Below, piece after piece: positions 2,608 through 58,703 of a stretch of DNA of 64,000 bases. Numbering within the stretch: position 1 is the first letter of the stretch; every line of letters starts with the position of its first letter. Position numbers and translations under genes: made by a program. The notes below the pieces were generated by a model, which searched no databases, was not told the origin of the DNA, and saw only the letters and a program-made list of their open reading frames with translations. The stretch is from Fasciola hepatica (taxonomy: Eukaryota; Platyhelminthes; Trematoda; Plagiorchiida; Fasciolidae). Where the stretch lies: NCBI GenBank assembly GCA_948099385.1, contig CANUEZ040000068.1:640001-704000 (forward strand), written 5' to 3'.

Positions 2608-2760
2608 GTTTGATTGACGGTCCTTTTGGACGGAGGATATGCATCACTGATGAGCTCTAACAAGAGCGAAACTCGAGTCTGGTGCTTCCGAGTGCAGGTT
2701 GGCCGGATGACCTGAGGTTTGCGCGTGAAACGTGGAGTCCAAAAGGACAGTCAATCAAAC
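2608..2760. repeat. 24-bp inverted repeats flanking the hammerhead
   Basis: The left arm 2608-2631 and the right arm 2737-2760 are reverse complements with a single mismatch. They frame about 105 bp that contains the hammerhead motif. In RNA the arms would close a stable stem with the ribozyme in the loop; in DNA they resemble short terminal inverted repeats. The arms are the left-hand segment of family B repeated in inverted orientation, the same inverted topology seen in families A and C. Confidence 0.75.
2635..2689 (+). ncRNA. type I hammerhead ribozyme, core intact (family B)
   Basis: The self-cleaving motif can be read base by base. CTGATGA is at 2647-2653. Stem II is GCTC (2654-2657) with GAGC (2664-2667), closing loop TAACAA. 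GAAA is at 2668-2671. A very short stem III C72-G77 closes loop TCGA. The GTC cleavage triplet is 2677-2679. Stem I pairs GCATCA (2641-2646) with TGGTGC (2680-2685), six pairs including one G-U. Beyond an internal loop, GGA (2635-2637) pairs with TCC (2687-2689). All conserved core positions of the family are present. Very short stem III is typical of retroelement hammerheads, which may act as dimers. Cleavage is predicted after 2679. Confidence 0.85.
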
Positions 2761-2770
2761 GAAAATATCT

Positions 2771-3547
2771 AATAAAGTCATGAATCTACATTGAAAATGA
2801 AATGCTGGGTGAGGCTTCAGTGATCAGACTGCAGAAGGTTATCAGTCTACCAATGGGAATTTAAATAATATTTTAGTAGCTTACTGATTCATAGCTGGGA
2901 TAGAAAAAGCTCCACATTGTACGTTTTTCAAAATTTATGGTATATCTTTGTGTATGCCCTGATGGAACCAACAAAACGCCAGTCAGCAACTGATTATTGT
3001 CATTATTAATCTGGGGAATTTTCATTATTCTTGGCAAGGGTACCAACCAATCCGTCAGCATTTAAAAAAAATTAGACTACTCAGAACAACTGTCACATAG
3101 TCTTCTAACCCTTCCATAAGATACGGAAAAATTCGACTCAAAAAACTACTTGAAGATTGGTGCTTCTCCGTGACCCCACCGGTATATCTGCCTGAAATTA
3201 TTATTTAACATAATATCTGTGATCTTACAGAACAATATGCTATATCGCGAACAAAAGCTGACCTCGTGTGTAAGGTGATTGGTACGTTGACTTACCTGCC
3301 TGATACTCATTGCACATTTTACCAAAATATGTTCTCGTTCATTTTACATACTCTCAGATTTTGAAATTGCGTGACCAACTCTGACCGAAAAATCGATCAT
3401 CTTTGAGTCTTCCGCCAGTGCTGATATAATACTCATGATAAATTCATGAAAACCCTAATAAAATTACCAATTAGACGTTTGGATAGTTTGGGTTCACTTG
3501 AAACGAAAATCGATCTTTACTCTATCTGGTAAATTGTTGAAAGCCGT

Positions 3548-3552: not shown

Positions 3553-3588
<36 letters not shown>
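3553..3588. repeat. (AT)n microsatellite
   Basis: About 18 uninterrupted AT dinucleotides. It abuts the tail end of a family C hammerhead repeat. AT tracts also abut the family C copies at 52.7 and 60.2 kb. Confidence 0.95.
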
Positions 3589-3590
<2 letters not shown>

Positions 3591-4012
3591 ATAGTAAGTA
3601 TTACGTAACTGTGCGGATGAAATTTCCCCGAAAGCATACGGCCGGTGTCGCGGTTGCTGCTGCTCATCAGGTATGCGTATCCGTTACTCCTCTGTCAACT
3701 TACCTTCATACTTGTACACACAGTTGTTATATGTTCACTGGGATTTTATTTGAGTCGTCTCGAGTGTGAATGGACTATCTTTATTGGAGAGTCCATAAAT
3801 GAACAATAGTTGTGATTTCTCATAGTCGTTTCTGGATCACTGCTAACCCAACGAACAAAAAGGCTGCATGTGCAAGAGCTAACATGGGCAGTAAGTGGTA
3901 TGTAAACGTGCAGACTCAAACACGAATAATTATCAGAAATCGCAGTTGTGATTCGTCAGGGGACACTTCAGTAAAGAGTATTCATTCCCACTCCAGACTG
4001 TTCCATATGATC
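3589..4012. mobile_element. hammerhead repeat family C, inverted copies
   Basis: On the minus strand this holds a partial unit tail (about 3912 down to 3850) followed by a full unit (about 3855 down to 3589) with a decayed hammerhead. From about 3913 to 4010 the start of the same unit reads on the plus strand, giving a divergent inverted pair. The sequence resembles 52050-52722 over nearly the whole length, for example the word TTATATGTTCACTGGGAT. No protein is encoded. The arrangement (head-to-tail piece plus inverted piece) is the same as in family A at 17.2-18.0 kb. Confidence 0.65.
3634..3676 (-). pseudogene. decayed hammerhead ribozyme (family C)
   Basis: On the minus strand CTGATGA is complementary to 3664-3670. 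Stem I is a perfect 6-bp GCATAC/GTATGC (3671-3676 with 3634-3639). Stem II (3660-3663 with 3650-3653) has one mismatch. The GAAAC element reads GACAC (3645-3649), so a core A has become C, and the expected GTC before the cleavage site reads GCC. Helix geometry is kept but catalysis is unlikely. Confidence 0.65.
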
Positions 4013-7852: not shown

Positions 7853-7932
7853 TCCGGAGCGAAATGGTACAGTGGTAACACACACGCCTTCGAGATGAAA
7901 GGGCCCGGGTCTCACACACCGGGTGTGGTAGA
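7853..7932 (+). promoter_or_regulatory. tRNA-like pol III promoter module, degenerate
   Basis: TGGTACAGTGGTAACAC (about 7864-7880) fits an A-box with its D-loop. GGGTCTCACACACC (from about 7907) sits where a B-box is expected but lacks the GGTTCGA core. Spacing suits a tRNA-derived SINE head. Transcription is doubtful because of the damaged B-box. Confidence 0.45.
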
Positions 7933-7985
7933 GGATCGCACCACTGATGAGCTATAACAAGAGCAAAACTGGAGTCTAGTGCTTC
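7933..7985 (+). pseudogene. inactivated hammerhead ribozyme (family B)
   Basis: CTGATGA is intact at 7944-7950. Stem II keeps three pairs (GCT 7951-7953 with AGC 7962-7964). The GAAA element reads AAAA (7965-7968), so the G that acts as general base is lost. Stem I GCACCA (7938-7943) pairs with TAGTGC (7977-7982) with one mismatch. The GTC triplet is kept at 7974-7976. It is clearly homologous to the intact motif at 2635-2689 and probably dead. Confidence 0.75.
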
Positions 7986-8279
7986 GAAGTGCGGTTTGGT
8001 CAGATGAACTGAGGTTGGTGCGTGACAGGACGGGGATTTCTTCACTTCAAGTCAAGTGAATATTCAACCTTCACGTAACCATAAGCGCCTCTCAAGAAAA
8101 AATTACAAAATTTGTAATAAAATAAAATACTTGGGTAATGTGCAGCAGTCATTTATTTCATCCCAAATGTCCACCAATGCATGTGTTTCAGGGCCACCAT
8201 ATTTAATTATATTAACGCCTAAATTATGAGCATAAGACCAATACGAAATTTGTGTGATAGCATTCCGGATGGCAGACAT

Positions 8280-9995: not shown

Positions 9996-12107
9996 GTTCA
10001 AAGAATACTGTGAAACTGAGTAAACAAATTCGAAGTGGCCTGTAGTTGAAAATTCAGGGAAGATATATACACTCATTTGCAAAAATGAGCGGGATTGCCC
10101 ACGAACATGGGTTCATATTCGTTTAAGAAACAGCTAATGAAAACTATGAAATAGGTAAAAACGGTTCTGACTTGTTTACAACAAAAACTGTTTGTACACA
10201 TAATAACTCCTTCACTTTGCTTGTGGTAATACGCAAAGCAATCCACACAATATCTAGTGAAAACATCATATGCAACATTCTCATTGCCAAAATCGCTATG
10301 AAGCCAGGTTCGTTGCAGAAGGATTGTTCTGAGCTAAGCGTATTCTTTTGTTCCAACAAAATCCAACAGCATCGAACAATTGCTCAGTGAAGATTGAGCG
10401 TCGTTACTGATTACAGTGGTCAGGCATATGGTGTGCTTAGGCATTTTTGTGAGAAGATAATTTCCAGCCTGTGTGATGTTTTTTAGTGAGCTCTAGTGCC
10501 ATCTGTTCTGATCAAGGATTCATGTGTTTGATGTTTTTCCACAGGAAGATTCTACTGAAATATGCCTCGTTTTAGTGACATAACAGTCGTTACGGTAACC
10601 AAGGTGAAAAACAGTAAACCAGAGGATTCGTGTATGGCTATATGATACATATTTCAACCGATATAGAACGGCATGGACAGATCCAACGACCCGATCGGCA
10701 CTCCTCTACTTAAAATCACGATGTCATGAAAATGCGATCTACCTCCTTCCTATTAGCTATTGAATAAAATCGTGCATGAAGTTATTGATTGATTGGTGTT
10801 GGACCAGAAACCCACTCAAGGCAAAAGAGGTAGAGTGCAGTACCCATCCGATCCTTTGTAAATCTTTAGGTTTTAGGTGTAAATACACCTACTTATCAGT
10901 GGTACAATAGTCACTTAAATACTTCGATCTCCGTTAAGTGGTGTTGATTTCGAACACTGCGAAGTGTCCATAATCGTCATTGAATGTTTCATTTGAAATA
11001 GACATTTTCCTTACCAGTTACTAACAGCTTGTCAGTAGTTACAACCCACATGTTGATCTTCTCATTCTCCCTTGTCCTGTTCGGCCTAGAGTTTGTCATT
11101 GCACCATGGACTTCTGCCTAAAATACACTTCTAGCCTGTCTCTATCTTCTCGGTGTGTCTTTTCGTAGGTTGAACGGCTTGTTGGACGTCGGCCCAGTAT
11201 TTGTTTCCCAAGTACTACTCGAATTTGTCTCAGAATCATTTCAGACCTATCGTCACCGCGACCATTCGCCCAGACCGACCTTGTCCACCACAGCTTGACT
11301 ATACGTTTTCTGTATTTTGCTCGGTTCAAAATTTGGCTGTGTTTTTGATATTAATTGACTGCTAACGCAATACCGATTACAGAGCGATGTCTTGGAATTC
11401 TATTCGGGATGTGAAGTAAGCCACACTGAGGGAAAATAACCATGAATGTTTGAAAGCTGATAGGTTGTGTGAATACAAGTGGAATTAAATCGCAACAATC
11501 AGATTTCTCAGTCGAAAGAATTTTGCCTAGATTCACTATGTAAAGGCTTTACAAAAAATAAAGAAGACAAAACATTGCACACATTTGATGCCTAAGCTGC
11601 TTTCCGTTGTGATGGAAATGTCCATCATTGCATGCAATAAAGTGAAAATCGGTCTGAAGGTAACATATGAGTTGCGGTTCGAATGCCGATACAACTAAAA
11701 GATTTCCAAAAAGAGTGCCGCCCTATAAAAGAAATCGGTCTGGGAGAAAGACGGTTCATGAATGGTATAGTATTTCACGCGTTTTAGTGGGTCTGGGGTG
11801 AATTGAAAACCTTAAATCTTCTAGATCAGAACGAAAAGTGTGCAGAATTCAATATCATGGGGATAAAAATTTGTGCTAACTGATAATAATGTCTGAAGCC
11901 CGACTCAAATAAATAAGAACGGAAGGTAGGCGACGAAATAATGATCCTGACCGTGGATTCACTGGCATTTAATCTAAGCGATCTAAGCTTAGCCTTATCT
12001 GCTGGTCCCAAAGCTTCACAAGGAGACAGTCCAACACGATATTTTAATTTCCTGTTATCTCAAACTGCCTAGTATTGAACTCTGTGTGTGCATACAACAT
12101 TGGGTTT
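9996..12107. other. gene-poor DNA, nothing recognised
   Basis: Only short frames occur. The longest is a basic 77-codon minus frame at 11096-11329 without a motif. I see no repeat shared with the rest of the window, no RNA gene and no convincing exon. Confidence 0.45.
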
Positions 12108-12386
12108 TGTAGCGACCTGGATCGGGCTTAGAACATGACTGTTTTCCAGACATTATTTTGGATTTATTTTCTCCACAATCATTTCTAGGACTTGATGAGC
12201 ACGACCCTTTCTGGGTAATTCACGGACCTGATGAGTCTGTGATTTTTGCTTTTTCACCCTCTTTATTTTCACGGTATATATTTTTGCGACATATTATCTC
12301 GCCGTGGTCATGTCTGAGGATAAAATGCATCTCGACACAGACCTCTCGCTGTCAGCCGTTACCTTCAAACCCGTGGCCTCTATCCC
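12108..12386 (+). repeat. 5' LTR of the gypsy element
   Basis: It starts TGTAGCGACCTGGATCG and shares with 16930 onward this opening and a downstream run around ATTTTGGATTTA. It holds a TATA-like stretch near 12276. It ends before the primer site. It appears shorter than the 3' LTR, suggesting internal deletion. Confidence 0.65.
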
Positions 12387-16010: not shown

Positions 16011-16929
16011 GTGATTTCTCGTCACTATAAGACCCTTGAGTTCGATCGACACAAGTTGCGTAGATGCAGTTAGTATCACTCGTCTCACAGCCGCATACGT
16101 TGGTGATAGCGCATTACCTGCTGACAAGTGATCCAATGCTAACTACGCACTACCTGAATACGACATTTCCGTGTCACGTCGGGGCCCGCAGTTAGCGTTG
16201 CCTGCTACGACTTCGAATGAGATTATCGTCTCACCTTCCAGTCAGCACACGATTGGCTCAGCCACGTCCTCGGATGAGCATACTGTCTGAAGTTCAAGTC
16301 AACGGTGCACCCCTCATTAAACTCGTCCGTGAATAAGGCTTCTGGCTCACAATATAGTCGGAAGATCGTTTACCCAACAAGTTTCCGCGACTAGGACAAA
16401 TACAATCCTGATCTCGCACTTCGCAGTAATCATTTTCGTGTTTGTCACTTCAACACGACTTAACATATATCATTAGTTATTACTGTACACTTTTGACGAT
16501 CATTTTCTGTCTCTTTCTGTTCCATGAAATCTTGCCATATGGTACGCTTCGCTGGTCCCACGAAATCCAGAGAATTTACGCAACGAAGTTTGAATTCTGA
16601 TTCGGCCCTATCACTGTCGTCCCTCGTCACTGATGAACCTACTGATTTGAATGACGAATATCATATTGGCCAACGGTTACCCGAAGCTGGACGGTATTGG
16701 TGTGGGATAGCTGGATGAAGACTCACGCAATCAATGTCATTGGCCACGAATTTGTCTTACGCTCGACCACCATTCTACGGTTCCTGCACACCAAGGATTC
16801 TGCCAGTCAACATCAACCAGCATGACTGCATTTACGTATTTGGCAGGCATTCACGAGCACAAATGTCGTTTGTATGCCCATACCTCCATAAATTTATTCG
16901 AAGCTTTCCACGCTTTCTAGTGTTTGGGT
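16011..16929 (+). other. gypsy 3' part of the polyprotein and untranslated region
   Basis: Low-complexity Ser/Thr-rich coding-like sequence in broken frames follows the integrase, as expected for the polyprotein C-terminus, and then non-coding sequence up to the 3' LTR. No extra gene (env-like) is seen. Confidence 0.45.
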
Positions 16930-17199
16930 TGTAGTGACCTGGATCGTGCTAATAAAATATGCATTTTCGGGACACAATTTTGGATTTACTTCCTCTATCA
17001 TCTTTTCTGACACATGTTTTCGAACTGAGTAGGTTTAACTGAGCTGACCTTCCCGTGTTTTCCGTGGCCCTTGTTTTTGAATCACTTTTGATTTTTGGTT
17101 TATCGCCGACCATACACGCTCGCGGTTCCCTTCCTGCTTTGCATTTGCATTCGTTTGCATTCAGTGTACTTCTAATATCGGTACGGCCTCGTTGCCACG

Positions 17200-17211
17200 A
17201 TATATAGAATA
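17200..17211. repeat. target-site duplication, left copy
   Basis: ATATATAGAATA, identical to 18035-18046. It lies exactly at the left end of the family A composite. Confidence 0.75.
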
Positions 17212-17296
17212 TTTGCAATTGAGTAGTAGGAGATTAGATTTGTATATAATATGATTCATCATGTAGCTTGAACGCTCAACTCACCATTGAAAACCA

Positions 17297-17353
17297 TGGA
17301 AGCACCGTACAGCTGTTTCATCCTTGTTGGGAATCATCAGCAGTGCACATCCA
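17297..17353 (-). ncRNA. hammerhead ribozyme, family A, left arm
   Basis: Reverse complement of the motif at 17927-17983 with the same bases: CTGATGA, stem II TTCC/GGAT, GAAAC, GTA cleavage triplet and a 6-bp stem I. The ends of the outer stem are at 17353 and 17297. Like its partner it has a T-T mismatch at the base of stem II, where G-C is usual. Confidence 0.7.
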
Positions 17354-17355
17354 CC

Positions 17356-17434
17356 GAGCCCCCACGGGGACTCGAACCCGGGGTGAACGATTGTGAATCG
17401 AACACCTTAACCGCAAGGCTATCCGGGTTGGCTC
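17356..17434 (-). promoter_or_regulatory. tRNA-like module (A and B boxes), left arm
   Basis: Reverse complement of 17846-17924, with A-box and B-box sequence (GGTTCGAGTCC) intact. It lies two bases upstream of the left-arm hammerhead. It would drive pol III transcription toward lower coordinates. Confidence 0.65.
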
Positions 17435-17845
17435 TTAACGGTTTGTTGAACATCTACACTACATGATATAGCACCCTTCCCAAACTGGCTTTTGAACGGT
17501 AACAACCCGCTTCCCACAGAGCGATCGACTCCTATGATGGATGACTTCTCTGTAGGGGCCTAAGTACAACGAAGGCATTCCGTTATGAACAACCTACAAA
17601 GCTTGGTTACTATTTGCAGTTGAGTAGTAGGAGATTAGATTTGTATATAATATGATTCATCGTGCAGCTTGAACGCTCAACTCACCATTGTTCGTAACGG
17701 AAATCCTTCGTTGTACTTAGGCCCCTACAGAGAAGTCATCCATCATAGGAGTCGATCGCTCTGTGGGAAGCGGGTTGTTACCGTTCAAAAGCCAGTTTGG
17801 GAAGGGTGCTATATCATGTAGTGTAGATGTTCAACAAACCGTTGA

Positions 17846-17924
17846 GAGCCAACCCGGATAGCCTTGCGGTTAAGGTGTTCGATTCACAATCGTTCACCCC
17901 GGGTTCGAGTCCCCGTGGGGGCTC
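17846..17924 (+). promoter_or_regulatory. tRNA-like module (A and B boxes), right arm
   Basis: GAGCC (17846-17850) pairs with GGCTC (17920-17924) as a short acceptor stem. TAGCCTTGCGGTTAAGG is a good A-box with D-loop. GGTTCGAGTCC is a perfect B-box within a T-arm of four pairs out of five. The anticodon loop reads TTCACAA (CAC, nominally Val), but its stem has only three pairs and the acceptor is short. I take it as a tRNA-derived SINE head rather than a functional tRNA gene. A tRNA finder may call it. Confidence 0.7.
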
Positions 17925-17926
17925 GG

Positions 17927-17983
17927 TGGATGTGCACTGCTGATGATTCCCAACAAGGATGAAACAGCTGTACGGTGCTTCCA
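17927..17983 (+). ncRNA. hammerhead ribozyme, family A, right arm
   Basis: CTGATGA is at 17940-17946, stem II TTCC/GGAT (17947-17950, 17957-17960) closes loop CAACAA, and GAAAC is at 17961-17965. A minimal stem III gives a GTA triplet at 17970-17972. Stem I pairs GCACTG (17934-17939) with CGGTGC (17973-17978), six pairs with one G-U. After an internal loop, TGGA (17927-17930) pairs with TCCA (17980-17983). The core is complete. The first pair of stem II is T-T instead of G-C, which should weaken activity. Palindromic ACAGCTGT at stem III could favour dimer action. Confidence 0.78.
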
Positions 17984-18034
17984 TGGTTTTCAATGGTGAG
18001 TTGAGCGTTCAAGCTGCATGATGAATCATATTCT

Positions 18035-18046
18035 ATATATAGAATA
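18035..18046. repeat. target-site duplication, right copy
   Basis: ATATATAGAATA, identical to 17200-17211. The following bases complete an AATAAA signal of the interrupted LTR. Confidence 0.75.
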
Positions 18047-52049: not shown

Positions 52050-52120
52050 GATTTCCCACAAATGGGTATATAAATATTGATAGTAAGTAGTATGAAAATG
52101 TGTGGACGGAACTTCCCCGG

Positions 52121-52165
52121 GAGCACATGACCGGTTTCCCGGTTGTTGCCGCTAATCAGGTATGT
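52121..52165 (-). pseudogene. hammerhead ribozyme C2, one core change
   Basis: On the minus strand: CTGATTA (52153-52159; the core G at position 8 is T), stem II GCGG/CCGG with loop CAACAA, GAAAC intact (52134-52138), minimal stem III, and a GTC triplet (52129-52131). Stem I keeps about four pairs. G8 is needed for catalysis, so it is probably inactive. Confidence 0.7.
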
Positions 52166-52478
52166 GTACCCAGTACTCCTCTGTCCACTCGTTCTCATAC
52201 TTGTACACTCCGATGTTATATGTTCACTAGGATCTAATTTGAATCGTCTGGAGTGTGGATGGATACTCTTTAAGGAAGAGCACGCAGCCTCGTTGTTCTT
52301 TGGGTTAGCAGTGACCCAGACGCGAATAACTATAAGAAATCACAGTTGTGATTCATTTGTGGGCTCTTCAATGAGGAGTATCAATTCACACTCCAGACGA
52401 TTCATATTAGATTCTAGTGAACATATAACATCGGAGTGTACAAGTATGAAGACGAGTGGGCAAAGGAGTACCGGGTAC

Positions 52479-52521
52479 GCATACCTGATGAGCGGCAACA
52501 ACCGCCAAACGCGTCCTCTGC
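52479..52521 (+). pseudogene. hammerhead ribozyme C3, G12 lost
   Basis: CTGATGA intact at 52485-52491. Stem II GCGG/CCGC (52492-52495, 52502-52505) is perfect, closing loop CAACAA. GAAAC reads CAAAC (52506-52510), losing the general-base G. A GTC triplet follows at 52513-52515. Stem I (52479-52484 with 52516-52521) has two mismatches. C2 and C3 carry different lesions, so they decayed independently from an intact ancestor. Confidence 0.75.
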
Positions 52522-52722
52522 TTCCGGCCAAATTTCGTCCACACGTTAACATAATAATTACTATCAATATGAACGCTTGCACATGCAGCCTCGTTGTTCG
52601 TTGAGTTAGCAGTGACCCAGACACGAATAACTATGAGAAATCACAGTTCTCATTCATTGTTGGGCTCTTCAATCAAGAGTATCCATTGACAAATCAAGAC
52701 GATTCAAATTAGATCCTAGTGA

Positions 52723-52744
52723 ATATATATATATATATATATAA
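52723..52744. repeat. (AT)n microsatellite
   Basis: Short AT tract at the right edge of the family C array. Confidence 0.9.
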
Positions 52745-55319: not shown

Positions 55320-55745
55320 CATGGGTAGTGGGAAATCAGATTTCACATAGTATGAGATTCATTGTGCAGCGTGAACTTACAAGTCATTGTAAACCATGGA
55401 AGCATTGTACAGCTGTTTCATACTTGTCAGGAATCACTCAAGTGCACTTCCATCGAACCACGACAGGGACCCTCACACATGGGGAACGACTGAGAGTGGA
55501 ATACTCAAGCACCCAGCTAACCCAGCTGGCCCTTAAAGGTTCATTGATATAACACGTTAACGACAATGGCCCCGGATATCAACTGGATATTTCCCGCATA
55601 GCAAGGTGCTCTTTTGATGAATGGCTTCTCTGTAGGAACCTAACTGAAGTAAGACCGTTCTGTTAAGTAACCTACACAGTTATCCTCCCACAGGAGTATC
55701 AGGAGATTGCATTTTACCTAATGTCATTCATCATACATCATCATG
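55320..55745 (-). mobile_element. hammerhead element family A, old copy
   Basis: It aligns over its whole length with the left arm and spacer of the element at 17.2 kb: a partial tail (55745-55680) and then a full unit (55678-55320), both on the minus strand. Shared words include ACCATGGAAGCA, GTACAGCTGTTTCATACTTGT and GGCTTCTCTGTAGG. Divergence is high. The same partial-tail-plus-unit order in an independent copy shows that the head-to-tail dimer is the transposing form. The tRNA-like boxes are degraded. Confidence 0.7.
55397..55452 (-). pseudogene. hammerhead remnant, family A
   Basis: GAAAC and the following CAGCTGTAC are kept on the minus strand, as are the outer-stem bases. The CTGATGA box is damaged (reads TTGAGTGA). 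Inactive. Confidence 0.6.
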
Positions 55746-56181: not shown

Positions 56182-56317
56182 CTGAATGTGAAAGACTTCA
56201 ATGAATCTAGTTAATTTGTAATAACCACTGCCGGTTACTGGATTGCGGCTGCTCTGGTTGCTGTTTCTCAACAGTTGCCCAGCTTATAAAAAGGATTTGT
56301 CACTTTTACAGTACTTT

Positions 56318-56372
56318 CATGATTTCCCGTATAGCGCTGATTGTTCAAGTTGTATGATGAATCACTTCATGT
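56318..56372 (+). repeat. family A tail fragment, opposite orientation
   Basis: GATTGTTCAAGTTGTATGATGAATCA resembles the unit tail GAGCGTTCAAGCTGCATGATGAATCA of 18003-18030. It lies on the plus strand, so it is inverted relative to the copy at 55.3-55.7 kb. Confidence 0.55.
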
Positions 56373-58703
56373 AAAATAGAATGCTGGGATTACTGAATTC
56401 GAGTTACCAGTCTTGCATTCAACAAGGTGAATGTTATCACTACTACAATTTTCACAGTATAGTAGATGTACATTCATTCACACTCAGTTATTTAGCAGTA
56501 CCTATTACTTCCGAATTGAAATCAACCAACATGACGAGCAGGCACTATTTCTTGTCCATTAGTTTCCATCTGATTTTTGATGCAGATAACAACCCCGTTT
56601 TATTTCAATCGTTGCCCAAACACGTACGAAATTTGTAAATAACAGCTATTTGTCTACAAATCACGCATAAGCTTTCACCGTGTGGTAACCATATTTAGGT
56701 GCTTCAGCTATCCTCATTCTATATCTGGGAATCTGAGATCGTGACAGCGGATGACTTTCACCTCCGGTTCAGAATAGACCCTTGCATGTGTTACTGTTCC
56801 TCGCCTACTAACAAGAAATGCGTCAGGTTCAAGTGATGCGACTGCCAATTTCCGTATTACGTTCTTCACCGATGGCTTATTCGGCCACCGAAGGAATGGG
56901 GGCTTGATTTTAAATAATTTAGATCACTAGTTCATTTTTGTGATTACCAGCTTGGAGTGCAACACGGAATGCCTTTGCGAAATCTTTTGATTATGCTGAG
57001 TGCTTAACACAAAGACCAATTGATTTGGGATAGCGGCTTCAAAATATTACGAAACACCTGTTCGCAACAACCAATTATAAGTAGTGAGAAAAGGCAAAAC
57101 TTACAGGAAGTATCGATTGTGATATACACTGAAAATTCTCCGTAGATAATTTGGATCTTCGTAACTTAATTGAGATATATCAAGCCATCGGGTGGTGATA
57201 CTAATTTATTCAAATTCTCTTCTTTGATGCTATTTGGGCAATTGAATGCGTGTTAGCGTGATTGCCAGCGTGAAAGTATCTGAGAAGAGCGAGTTGACAA
57301 TAAGCAAGGTAAGGGAATATAAGTGAACTGATCTACAGGATCACATAAATTGTCTGTTTAAATGTGATAGGTTGGCTTTCCAAATATCTTGGTATAAGCC
57401 GTTTTCTCGGCCGGTACATTTTTCGTGTTTGCGCCTTTATTATAAGCTTATGACAAATTGTTTCATTATTTGAAAACTCCACGATGTGTGGCTTGAAAAT
57501 GCTTCTCGCCGATGACTATCAAACTTACTAGAAAAGTTAGTTCTAGTTCGCAGCGATATGAGTTTTGGCTCCGAGCTCATTTGAATGCACTTCGTGAATC
57601 GCTTAAGTTGTTATTGTGATAGCGATGAAAAAATCTGCTACAACTAGTTCTTTTTGGTACTTACATGAAATGGACTGAAGAAGAATTGCAGAGGTCAATT
57701 TTTTTTAACCTTTGTTGCCGTATCTTGTCCAGTATTTCACAAAGAATACAGGCATCAGTTATCGGATAAATCAGAGAAAAACCATCCCAGGTACACATTT
57801 CAGATGAGAAACCGGTGCCGGAAATACCTGCTCTTAATCCATGGCAGAATATTCTCAGACTATCTCAGTCCTTGCTGAACATTGTGTAGTGACAATCGGT
57901 AATGCGGTGAGTATGACAGGATTCGAAGGTTGCACTGCATGACAAACAAATGAGGGTAAGCATTGGTTTCATTAGGGAATTCAAATCATGGGGCCTGTCG
58001 CTTTTCCGATGGGTTTGTTTATCATACGAGTGTTTGGCACGTGATGATTCATAGGCTGCTCAGAAAAATGTCTTTCGGTGCGCGAAAATCCCCGAAAGTT
58101 TATCCCACCGAAGGTTCTTATATCACACTGACCACCACCATTATTTTGGAACGGAAATAAGATACCTTTTACTTCGTTGATTGACTTTATTTTGATACGC
58201 CGTAAATGTTAGAGCAATCTTCATCTTTATGAATAAAAAGGCCCCCGAATTCAAGCGAAATAATTTATCTGGGTAGGTTATCGTTTTTTGGATAAATTTT
58301 CATGCTTTGTTTCACAAGAAGTTTGTAAATAAAGTCAAACAGAACCACTTGTCTTTTAATTATTCACTGTGAGACTTGAATTTGTATCCGCAAATTCAAG
58401 GTCCTGTCCACCCACCTAACTTCTAATAGTGCAGATATGTTTATTTGTAAATATTTCTTTGTTCCTAAAAGGATAGTAAAAGAGCTACCTACAAACTGAT
58501 CTCTGGAGACTAAAGTACAACACATCATGGTGCATATATAAACACTTATTTCATCACCAACACGTTGGGCTCCATGCCCATGAGACTGTGAAAGTTGCTT
58601 CAGAATAAAGACAGGCCAAATGTTTACTATGGTTTATGGATATTTTGTTATAAATATGTCTAGGTTAGTTCTACGTGAAAAAATCTTTACCATTTTTCTT
58701 CAG
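56373..58703. other. gene-poor, intron-like DNA
   Basis: Short frames only. A 24-bp minus-strand segment (57105-57128) has acceptor- and donor-like borders but does not keep frame with the exon at 55942-56181 (junction would give TGA). Confidence 0.4.

What the first reader, a model, noticed from the sequence alone, without database searches (positions are those of the whole stretch)
17200..18046. 823-bp inverted composite with two tRNA-like/hammerhead modules inserted as one unit
Arms of 343 bp are nearly identical reverse complements, and the spacer holds a direct partial copy. A perfect 12-bp duplication (ATATATAGAATA) brackets the whole element inside the gypsy 3' LTR. So an element made of a partial unit, a full unit and an inverted full unit moved in one event. 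Such direct-plus-inverted terminal arrangement is known from Penelope-like elements; here no protein is encoded.
Basis: partly seen in the sequence, partly recalled or inferred. Interest (0 to 1): 0.88.

Follow-up and report, generated by a model that had tools for sequence, protein, structure and literature searches.

The report
Ribozyme-tRNA satellite inserted Penelope-style
A small non-coding repeat carrying a tRNA-like stretch and a hammerhead ribozyme appears to copy itself around this genome with the machinery of Penelope-type retroelements, and some of its insertions are whole satellite arrays, which suggests how such DNA can arise.

Summary
In detail: an 823-bp insert (17212-18034) with 350-nt inverted arms, a direct 80-nt partial copy and a perfect 12-bp target duplication.

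It is a copy of a 401-bp ORF-less monomer (tRNA-like, then hammerhead) that also forms satellite arrays, about 1.3 Mb on one contig. tRNA plus hammerhead is known from schistosome Sm-alpha repeats and "retrozymes": a new variant of a known kind.

"Composite moved as one unit" is not supported. Nine head-to-head insertions have nine different inner junctions, and in the six informative ones the arms share alleles. Seven of 8 non-TA sites have their own 9-13-nt duplication.

The Penelope reading is supported. Outer ends favour two sites about 30 nt apart in a G-free tract, often one of each per insertion, like the "tail" of Penelope-like elements; 3 of 9 do not fit.

Most striking: a 26.8-kb and a 37-kb array, each inside one duplication; in the first, 50 of 64 full monomers are identical.

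Not shown: the helper (search unanswered), ribozyme activity, RNA circles.

The parts
17200..17211 (.). left target-site duplication ATATATAGAATA; its last 2 nt can also be read as the end of the element (microhomology)
17210..17690 (-). direct arm, sense = minus strand: m322-401 followed without break by m1-401 (m = position in the 401-bp monomer); outer end m401, tail present
17611..17690 (-). 80-nt direct partial copy (m322-401), the 5'-truncated monomer of the direct arm
17688..18034 (+). inverted arm, m19 to about m368, outer end without tail; overlaps the direct arm by 3 nt at the junction 17688-17690
17210..17241 (-). tail (about m370-401) at the outer end of the direct arm; absent from the inverted arm
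17357..17428 (-). tRNA-like sequence of the direct arm, B box GGTTCGAGTCC
   Evidence: Rfam tRNA 25.2 bits (gathering 29); B-box region located
17852..17923 (+). tRNA-like sequence of the inverted arm
17302..17346 (-). minimal type I hammerhead of the direct arm; predicted cut after 17308 (minus strand)
   Evidence: Rfam Hammerhead_1 26.2 bits, below gathering 34; position
17934..17978 (+). minimal type I hammerhead of the inverted arm; predicted cut after 17972
18035..18046 (.). right target-site duplication ATATATAGAATA
55322..55737 (-). old diverged copy of the same monomer (about 68%), m346-401/1-391, with the m401/m1 junction kept
56288..56399 (+). short inverted fragment (m283-394, 68%) belonging to the old copy; about 550 nt without a match to the monomer lies between

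Best explanation
The element is one insertion of a non-autonomous, ORF-less retroelement with a 401-bp monomer, a tRNA-hammerhead 'retrozyme' of the Sm-alpha kind. Proposed cycle: (1) the monomer is transcribed, perhaps by Pol III from the tRNA-like internal promoter or by read-through of arrays (inferred). (2) The hammerhead processes multimeric RNA and a host ligase circularises it, or uncut multimers persist (inferred). (3) A Penelope-like reverse transcriptase/GIY-YIG endonuclease cuts both strands of a target about 9-13 bp apart and starts reverse transcription on BOTH 3' ends, preferably at one of two adjacent sites in the C/A/T-rich 3' tract (about m368-371 and m394-401) (suggested by the genomic ends; enzyme inferred). 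(4) Each cDNA runs a variable distance, through part of one or through many monomers, and the two 5' ends are joined head to head with 0-3 nt of microhomology in most cases (shown as anatomy). (5) Very processive copying, or later growth, turns some insertions into tandem arrays of tens of kb; megabase blocks then grow by DNA-level duplication (partly shown).
For: Tandem 401-bp monomers without an ORF fill arrays, and the m401/m1 junction also exists in the 68% old copy, so the ORF-less monomer is itself the element. Ten insertions with both ends mapped: 9 are head to head; 7 of 8 non-TA sites share a 9-13-nt word across the insert, the two others lie in TA repeats. Nine junctions all differ. 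Outer ends pair tailed with tail-less in W, L011, L014 and C153, and probably in L010 and L015, whose tail-less ends merge into TA repeats. The ends lie in or beside the only long G-free tract of the monomer, m355-394. PMC11167929 passages: a purified anole PLE cleaves and extends both strands and starts reverse transcription at two adjacent internal sites in an AC-rich stem loop; the sequence between them is the 30-40-bp 'tail', a signature called unique to PLEs. In 6 of 7 dispersed head-to-head insertions compared, the arms share non-consensus alleles; the short arm of L015 covers no informative site. Template: a hammerhead-cut linear monomer would give at most 98 nt from m401 or 65 nt from m368, yet 16 of 19 arms run through the predicted cut site m303/304 (my reading of the maps), so the template was uncut multimer or circle. 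C153: 26.8 kb in one duplication, 50 of 64 full monomers identical, in both arms, while neighbours in the C67 and C192 arrays differ by means of 3.9-7.4 of 401 nt. Hammerhead core intact in 150 and B box in 151 of 160 full monomers from L009-L028. Circular fold -141.6 kcal/mol against -111 with SD 6 for 100 base-composition shuffles.
Against: No PLE protein sharing the tail was found, because the helper search did not complete. The hammerhead is below the Rfam cut-off (26.2-28.8 of 34 bits) and has a U.U mismatch at the base of stem II; no cleavage or circle was tested. Three of nine head-to-head insertions do not fit the two-site end rule: L013 (m400/m81), C30 (m399/about m271-280), L012 (m291/m258, no duplication). 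L017 has no inverted arm. L010 has a nearly symmetric palindromic junction (m373/m372), which self-priming would also give. L014 carries two monomer variants (208G then 208T) in the same order in both arms, though site 373 does not follow that order, and the '+' arm of L013 holds two variants, so their templates were multimers, not monomer circles. More homogeneous arrays than C67 exist (mean neighbour differences 1.4 on C275, 2.7 on C127), so a linear transcript of a homogeneous array could also give near-identical monomers. The sole T4 run (m318) could stop a Pol III transcript soon after the hammerhead. The sample leans to young copies and partly to composites: the 847-nt query holds both arms and only 39 of 4258 candidates were scored.
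Confidence: 0.72

Rival explanations
1. One reading: the 823-bp partial+full+inverted composite is itself the mobile element and moved in one event.
For: One clean 12-bp duplication around the composite; other copies also have inverted partners.
Against: Nine head-to-head insertions have nine different junctions and different arm lengths, and alleles shared between arms differ from insertion to insertion. None of the other eight has the m322/m19 junction.
Confidence: 0.03
2. It is the leftover of an ordinary Penelope-like element: the 401-bp unit is the pLTR of an autonomous PLE in this genome and the ORF was lost from these copies.
For: Layout, tail and minimal hammerhead are those described for PLE pLTRs (PMC7761336 passages). 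Solo pLTRs and pLTRs around unrelated sequence are reported (PMC3846280 passages).
Against: The same ORF-less m401/m1 junction occurs in arrays, in young insertions and in a 68% old copy, so ORF loss would be ancient and fixed. The word tRNA does not occur in PMC3846280 (0 occurrences).
Confidence: 0.12
3. The helper is a LINE, and the inversions are L1-like twin priming.
For: 9-13-nt duplications; PMC4918200 section 10-bp duplications at Nematostella hammerhead repeats LINE-like.
Against: In twin priming (recalled, from no call) only one outer end is a 3' terminus; here both outer ends are preferred 3' sites in 4 clear and 2 TA-merged of 9 head-to-head insertions, about 30 nt apart as in the PLE tail. 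No poly-A run is seen at the ends listed; two ends abut TA repeats.
Confidence: 0.1
4. The inverted arms arise by self-priming (hairpin synthesis on an antisense template), as proposed for rotifer Penelope elements.
For: Head-to-head polarity; PMC3846280 discussion passage; the L010 junction m373/m372 is a near-perfect palindrome.
Against: Self-priming should give mirror-image arms joined at the same monomer position. In 8 of 9 junctions the two 5' ends lie 43 to 193 positions apart, counted round the monomer (from the values), and the outer ends often differ by the tail.
Confidence: 0.07
5. For the large arrays only: the insertion was short and grew later by unequal crossing-over or replication slippage, not by reading round an RNA circle.
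For: C153 has variant monomers repeated at 7-unit spacing near one end (I A F A A A A I A F); the C30 array is heterogeneous at its left end (mean 5.57 differences between neighbours, 2.0 at the right end); the two C67 blocks share a similar left edge at m140 (by eye), so megabase blocks were duplicated as DNA.
Against: Identical monomers in both oppositely oriented C153 arms (9 of 13 and 41 of 51) would require rapid growth of both arms or conversion between them. Dispersed insertions already carry about 0.4 to 2.7 monomers per arm (lengths).
Confidence: 0.5

Closest known systems
Sm-alpha / Sj-alpha SINE-like repeats of schistosomes (hammerhead satellite; schistosome 'retrozyme')
   Same: Tandem and dispersed, no ORF, tRNA-derived part plus type I hammerhead (PMC2770079 passages: Sm-alpha-like elements from tRNA-Gln-TTG; PMC4918200 section 10 and Fig. 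7 legend; SMalpha member W36.2_W001, 335 bp, PMC8490949 passages).
   Different: Monomer 401 bp; the tRNA part reads as tRNA-Val (CAC) by ARAGORN rather than tRNA-Gln; the hammerhead is a minimal one with loopless helix III; head-to-head, tailed insertion anatomy was not mentioned in the passages I saw.
Metazoan non-LTR retrozymes (de la Pena and colleagues)
   Same: Short hammerhead monomers in tandem, highly self-paired RNA, no ORF; circle-templated copying proposed, PLEs named a strong candidate helper (PMC7229834 Discussion).
   Different: That group wrote that retrozymes do not seem to harbour promoters and show no motif that identifies the helper (PMC7761336 section 7 of the paper). This family has a tRNA-like internal promoter candidate and PLE-type ends.
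Penelope-like elements (Pen2a of Adineta vaga; PAc of Anolis)
   Same: Two direct copies plus one inverted, optional 31-bp (30-40 bp) tail on one end, short duplication, AT-rich targets, hammerhead in PAc, cleavage and extension of both strands in PAc.
   Different: No RT or GIY-YIG ORF here, and a tRNA-like module is present.
Hammerhead satellite DNA of newts and schistosome W elements
   Same: Hammerhead inside tandem arrays (PMC7229834 Discussion; PMC8490949 passages).
   Different: Here two individual arrays of 27 and 37 kb are flanked by a target duplication and have an inverted arm.

Membership tests
Sm-alpha-like tRNA-hammerhead SINE / metazoan non-LTR retrozyme | Short ORF-less monomer in tandem copies | tested here: met
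   401-bp monomer, arrays on C67, C192, C30, C275, C153, C127; no ORF of 80 aa or more inside the element
Sm-alpha-like tRNA-hammerhead SINE / metazoan non-LTR retrozyme | Type I hammerhead motif | tested here: inconclusive
   Hammerhead_1 at 26.2-28.8 bits, below gathering 34; catalytic core present in 150 of 160 full monomers; minimal form with loopless helix III
Sm-alpha-like tRNA-hammerhead SINE / metazoan non-LTR retrozyme | tRNA-derived part (Sm-alpha) | tested here: met
   Rfam tRNA 33.1 bits, above gathering 29, in one of three array monomers scanned, 26.8 and 25.2 in the others; ARAGORN tRNA-Val in 4 places of L020, which holds 8 full monomers
Sm-alpha-like tRNA-hammerhead SINE / metazoan non-LTR retrozyme | Expressed as linear and circular RNA that self-cleaves | not testable with these tools
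   no RNA data
Penelope-like element (autonomous) | ORF with RT and GIY-YIG endonuclease | tested here: not met
   no ORF of 80 aa or more inside the element; monomers follow each other directly in the arrays
Non-autonomous element moved by PLE machinery | Direct plus inverted terminal copies, head to head | tested here: met
   9 of 10 insertions mapped; L017 lacks the inverted arm
Non-autonomous element moved by PLE machinery | Two alternative 3' ends 30-40 nt apart ('tail') | tested here: met
   m368-371 and m394-401; 4 clear and 2 TA-merged of 9 head-to-head insertions carry one of each, 3 of 9 do not fit
Non-autonomous element moved by PLE machinery | Short target duplications, AT-rich targets | tested here: met
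   7 of 8 non-TA sites share 9-13 nt; two more insertions lie in TA repeats; not all duplicated words are AT-rich (for example CAACTTGGAC, GGAAATCCA)
Non-autonomous element moved by PLE machinery | Shared 3' sequence with an autonomous PLE of the same genome | not tested
   the PF01541 search of the genome was sent 31 times and never answered (calls listed in Tried and rejected)
Gypsy-LTR host element (target) | Paired LTRs around gag-pol | tested here: inconclusive
   one 87-nt repeat at 74.7%; no Pfam match for the four ORF pieces tried between 13149 and 15666

The most novel reading that the evidence does not exclude
Satellite DNA is born directly by retrotransposition. A Penelope-type enzyme cuts both strands of a target and runs round a self-made circular ribozyme RNA from both sides, laying down a ready-made head-to-head array of tens of identical monomers inside one target duplication in a single event (C153: 26.8 kb; C30: 37 kb). 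Such arrays then seed megabase blocks.
Probability: 0.33. Interest if true: 0.88.

Novelty: new variant of a known kind. Interest (0 to 1): 0.64.

Why it matters
Which enzyme moves animal hammerhead repeats has been left open in the papers I saw; PLEs were only proposed. Here the ends of individual insertions carry what PMC11167929 calls a signature unique to PLEs (two reverse-transcription start sites about 30 nt apart), so the proposal becomes testable from genome sequence alone. The same insertions suggest a simple origin for the odd direct-plus-inverted PLE layout: two independently primed first strands joined head to head. Target-duplication-flanked arrays of near-identical monomers offer a concrete way to see how a retroelement becomes satellite DNA.

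Tried and rejected
Empty-site test: the other candidate LTR (12100-12186 / 16924-17008, 74.7% over 87 nt) is too diverged to show the unoccupied site. Other collections: no match in phage records, no exact hit for a tRNA pattern in viral contigs or a hammerhead pattern in prokaryote genome contigs. Pfam on ten ORF pieces of the window: 0 of 10 matched. Hammerhead-cut linear monomer as template: rejected, because it could give only 65-98 nt of cDNA from the preferred 3' ends and 16 of 19 arms run through the cut site. Pure monomer-circle template for every insertion: rejected for L014 and, less surely, L013 (two monomer variants). Megabase blocks as single insertions: rejected for C67, whose two blocks share a similar left edge at m140 and whose four edges seen do not lie at the preferred 3' sites. 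The last fold (rotated monomer) used a wrong cut position (m16 instead of m303) and is not used.

Rows dropped: of the 20 stretches, L016, L018, L019 and L023-L028 served only as array samples; L018's array ends in an assembly gap on one side and no array edge of L016 is in hand, so neither enters the insertion counts. The counts rest on W, L010-L015, L017, C30 (L020, L021) and C153 (L009, L022, L089, L109-L111). L010's extra old copy (3142-3431) was mixed into its '+' row and was disregarded. C30's arms were not included in the allele comparison.

Papers: passages of PMC7229834 (plus its whole Discussion), PMC7761336 (plus one whole section), PMC11167929, PMC3846280, PMC8490949, PMC6155905, PMC2770079 and PMC4918200 (plus one whole section); no paper was read whole. 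Cervera & de la Pena 2014, Lunse 2017, Ferbeyre 1998 and Craig 2021 are not held, so they may describe more than I could see. That I found no description of PLE-type ends on retrozymes rests only on ten search listings and those passages.
Full report
WHAT IS THERE. The window is C68:640001-704000 of a 1.50-Gb, 656-contig genome without a name. At 17212-18034 lies an 823-bp insert flanked by a perfect 12-nt repeat, ATATATAGAATA. Mapped on the 401-bp monomer, sense = minus strand, it reads: inverted arm m368 to m19; 3-nt overlap; then a direct arm m322-401 continuing without break into m1-401. So the 'partial' and 'full' units are 1.2 tandem monomers of one direct arm, and the inverted unit is the second arm. 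The two 5' ends meet in the middle (head to head). Both outer ends are 3' ends of the element: one with the last 31-33 nt ('tail', m401), one without (m368).

THE MONOMER. In sense order: about 182 nt, the tRNA-like stretch (m183-254), 10 nt, the hammerhead (cut after m303), about 60 nt, the tail. In the window copy both motifs are below Rfam's cut-offs (25.2 of 29; 26.2 of 34). Of three array monomers scanned, one exceeds the tRNA cut-off at 33.1, and the three hammerheads score 28.8. ARAGORN calls tRNA-Val (CAC) four times in L020, which holds 8 full monomers. In 160 full monomers from L009-L028 the hammerhead core is intact in 150, the complete 45-nt consensus in 129, the B box GGTTCGANTCC in 151. 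The RNA is strongly self-paired: circular minimum energy -141.6 kcal/mol against -111 with SD 6 for 100 shuffles that keep base composition only.

HOW IT IS DISTRIBUTED. The genome search gave 308 matches, a lower bound since 39 of 4258 candidates were scored, and only part of the 308 was listed. Long arrays with 400- or 401-bp spacing lie on C30, C67, C127, C192, C275 and C153. On C67 one block has edges at about 21,094,559 and 21,959,412 and a second at about 22,051,689 and 22,482,523; the samples taken inside the blocks are array, and the eight taken between them (21.96-22.05 Mb) are not. If continuous between samples this is about 1.3 Mb, some 3,200 monomers. The 160 full monomers are on average 98.6% identical to their consensus.

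INDIVIDUAL INSERTIONS. Ten insertions have both ends mapped: the window copy W, L010, L011, L012, L013, L014, L015, L017, C30 and C153. Nine of ten are head to head; L017 has a single direct arm. Flanking duplications: W ATATATAGAATA; L011 TACTTGGATATC; L013 GGAAATCCA; L014 ACTAGAATATTTG; L017 CAACTTGGAC; C30 CAAAGAATTATTTG (14 nt including overlap with the tail); C153 GTATAGATAAAA (12 nt including overlap with the ends). L010 and L015 sit in TA repeats and are uninformative; L012 has none. In a fixed window around the ends, 7 of 8 non-TA sites share 9-13 nt, while 56 mismatched left/right pairs share at most 7 nt in 55 cases and 11 in one.

THE COMPOSITE IS NOT A MOBILE UNIT. The nine inner junctions are all different: 322/19 (W), 373/372, 342/2, 396/353, 233/160, 198/about 391, 209/132, 18/310, 164/about 387 (the two 'about' values are read by eye from the sequences printed there). 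Where the arms abut they overlap by 0-3 nt; C153 has a 1-nt gap. In six dispersed insertions (W, L010-L014) both arms share non-consensus alleles, for example 128-130 TTG and 305G in W, 192T/268A/282T/340A in L011, 79T/102T/177C/233T/255T in L012, 263A in L014; other alleles, such as 183A and 198C, are common to several insertions. The short arm of L015 covers no informative site. So the two arms were copied from the same or sister RNAs, and the inversion is made at each insertion.

THE ENDS POINT TO PENELOPE-TYPE MACHINERY. Outer ends: W 401/368, L011 401/369, L014 401/369, C153 394/368; L010 and L015 401 with the other end merging into TA repeats near m364-376; L013 400/81, C30 399/about 271-280, L012 291/258; L017 ends at m371. 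The two preferred ends are about 30 nt apart, in or beside the only long G-free tract of the monomer (m355-394). PMC11167929 (passages) reports that a purified Penelope-like protein cleaves and extends both target strands, starts reverse transcription at two adjacent internal sites in an AC-rich stem loop, and that the 30-40-bp 'tail' unique to PLEs is the sequence between those sites. PMC3846280 (passages) describes the same layout for a rotifer element: two direct pLTRs, an inverted pLTR, a 31-bp tail optionally on one of the inverted pLTRs, a 9-bp duplication. The simplest reading is that both sides of a staggered cut primed synthesis and the two cDNAs were joined at their 5' ends. Self-priming would give symmetric junctions; only L010 is symmetric.

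THE TEMPLATE. On a hammerhead-cut linear monomer (5' end m304) synthesis from m401 or m368 could run only 98 or 65 nt. Yet 16 of 19 arms run through the cut site; the exceptions are both arms of L012 and the short arm of C30 (my reading of the maps). The template was therefore uncut multimer RNA or a circle. L014 shows two monomer variants in the same order in both arms at site 208, though not at site 373, and the '+' arm of L013 holds two variants, so these came from multimers. C153 fits circle reading or very young growth better: 6487392-6514230 is one head-to-head insertion with arms of about 6.0 and 20.9 kb, one tailed and one tail-less end and a duplication. Of 64 full monomers 50 are identical letter for letter (9 of 13 in one arm, 41 of 51 in the other), whereas neighbours in the C67 and C192 arrays differ by a mean of 3.9-7.4 nt; C127 (2.7), C275 (1.4) and the right end of C30 (2.0) are more homogeneous. 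The F variant (7 differences, three copies) and variants repeated at 7-unit spacing argue for some DNA-level duplication. C30 is a 37-kb array (ends in L020 and L021, the middle seen only as search matches) within one duplication and with an inverted arm of about 110 nt. C67's megabase blocks share a similar left edge at m140 (by eye), so those grew by DNA-level duplication.

AGE AND ANCESTRY. A second copy in the window (55322-55737 minus, with an inverted fragment at 56288-56399 and about 550 nt between them without a match to the monomer) is about 68% identical and keeps the m401/m1 junction. The ORF-less tandem monomer is therefore old. The arms of W are 98% complementary.

WHAT IS KNOWN. 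tRNA plus hammerhead in an ORF-less satellite-like SINE is known: S. mansoni Sm-alpha-like elements derive from tRNA-Gln-TTG (PMC2770079 passages), and PMC4918200 section 10 notes a full tRNA in schistosome hammerhead repeats (text: tRNA-Gln; Fig. 7 legend: tRNA-Glu). [quoted passage not shown] I found no description of PLE-type tailed, head-to-head ends on such repeats in ten search listings and the passages seen; several key papers are not held.

WHAT IS SHOWN AND WHAT IS INFERRED. Shown: the insert and its duplication; the 401-bp ORF-less monomer and arrays; insertion-specific junctions, shared alleles, duplications, preferred ends; arrays of 27 and 37 kb inside single duplications. Inferred: the PLE enzyme, Pol III transcription, ribozyme cleavage, RNA circles, one-step birth of the arrays. 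Limits: no helper found, because no genome search after one search was answered; the sample leans to young copies; W, L010, L011, L012 and C153 came from matches to the two-armed query, so the fairer figure for inverted arms is the five found through the direct part alone (L013, L014, L015, L017, C30), of which four have one; assemblies can misplace identical monomers.

Noticed in passing
window 52074-52729: A second hammerhead-bearing family (Hammerhead_HH9 24.4 bits, gathering 52) with the same layout: inverted arm 52074-52286 / 52358-52570, direct copies at a 301-bp period, and TATATAAAT on both sides by eye in a TA-rich context. No tRNA hit there.
   Followed up: partly
window 3578-3910: A diverged (78-79%) copy of that second family, next to TA repeats.
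   Followed up: no
window 2641-2685 and 7931-8025: A better-scoring Hammerhead_1 (33.5 bits, gathering 34) between the complementary words GGTCCTTTTGGAC and GTCCAAAAGGAC, and an 83% relative of 2633-2728 at 7931-8025.
   Followed up: no
L112 3460 and L114 190 (C67): Both large array blocks on C67 start at the same monomer position (m140) next to similar flanking sequence (by eye), which points to segmental duplication of megabase satellite. The second block reverses strand between 22.45 and 22.475 Mb, again head to head.
   Followed up: partly
C153:6487392-6514230: Among 64 full monomers, variant F (7 differences) occurs three times, once right at the head-to-head junction, and variants recur at 7-unit spacing near the right end.
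   Followed up: partly
L010 3142-3431: An old copy of the monomer (73-76%) lies about 0.9 kb from a young insertion.
   Followed up: no
S. mansoni W27.2 (literature): A hammerhead-bearing repeat family of S. mansoni has a unit of 403 bp (PMC8490949 passages), close to 401 bp; no sequence comparison was possible.
   Followed up: no
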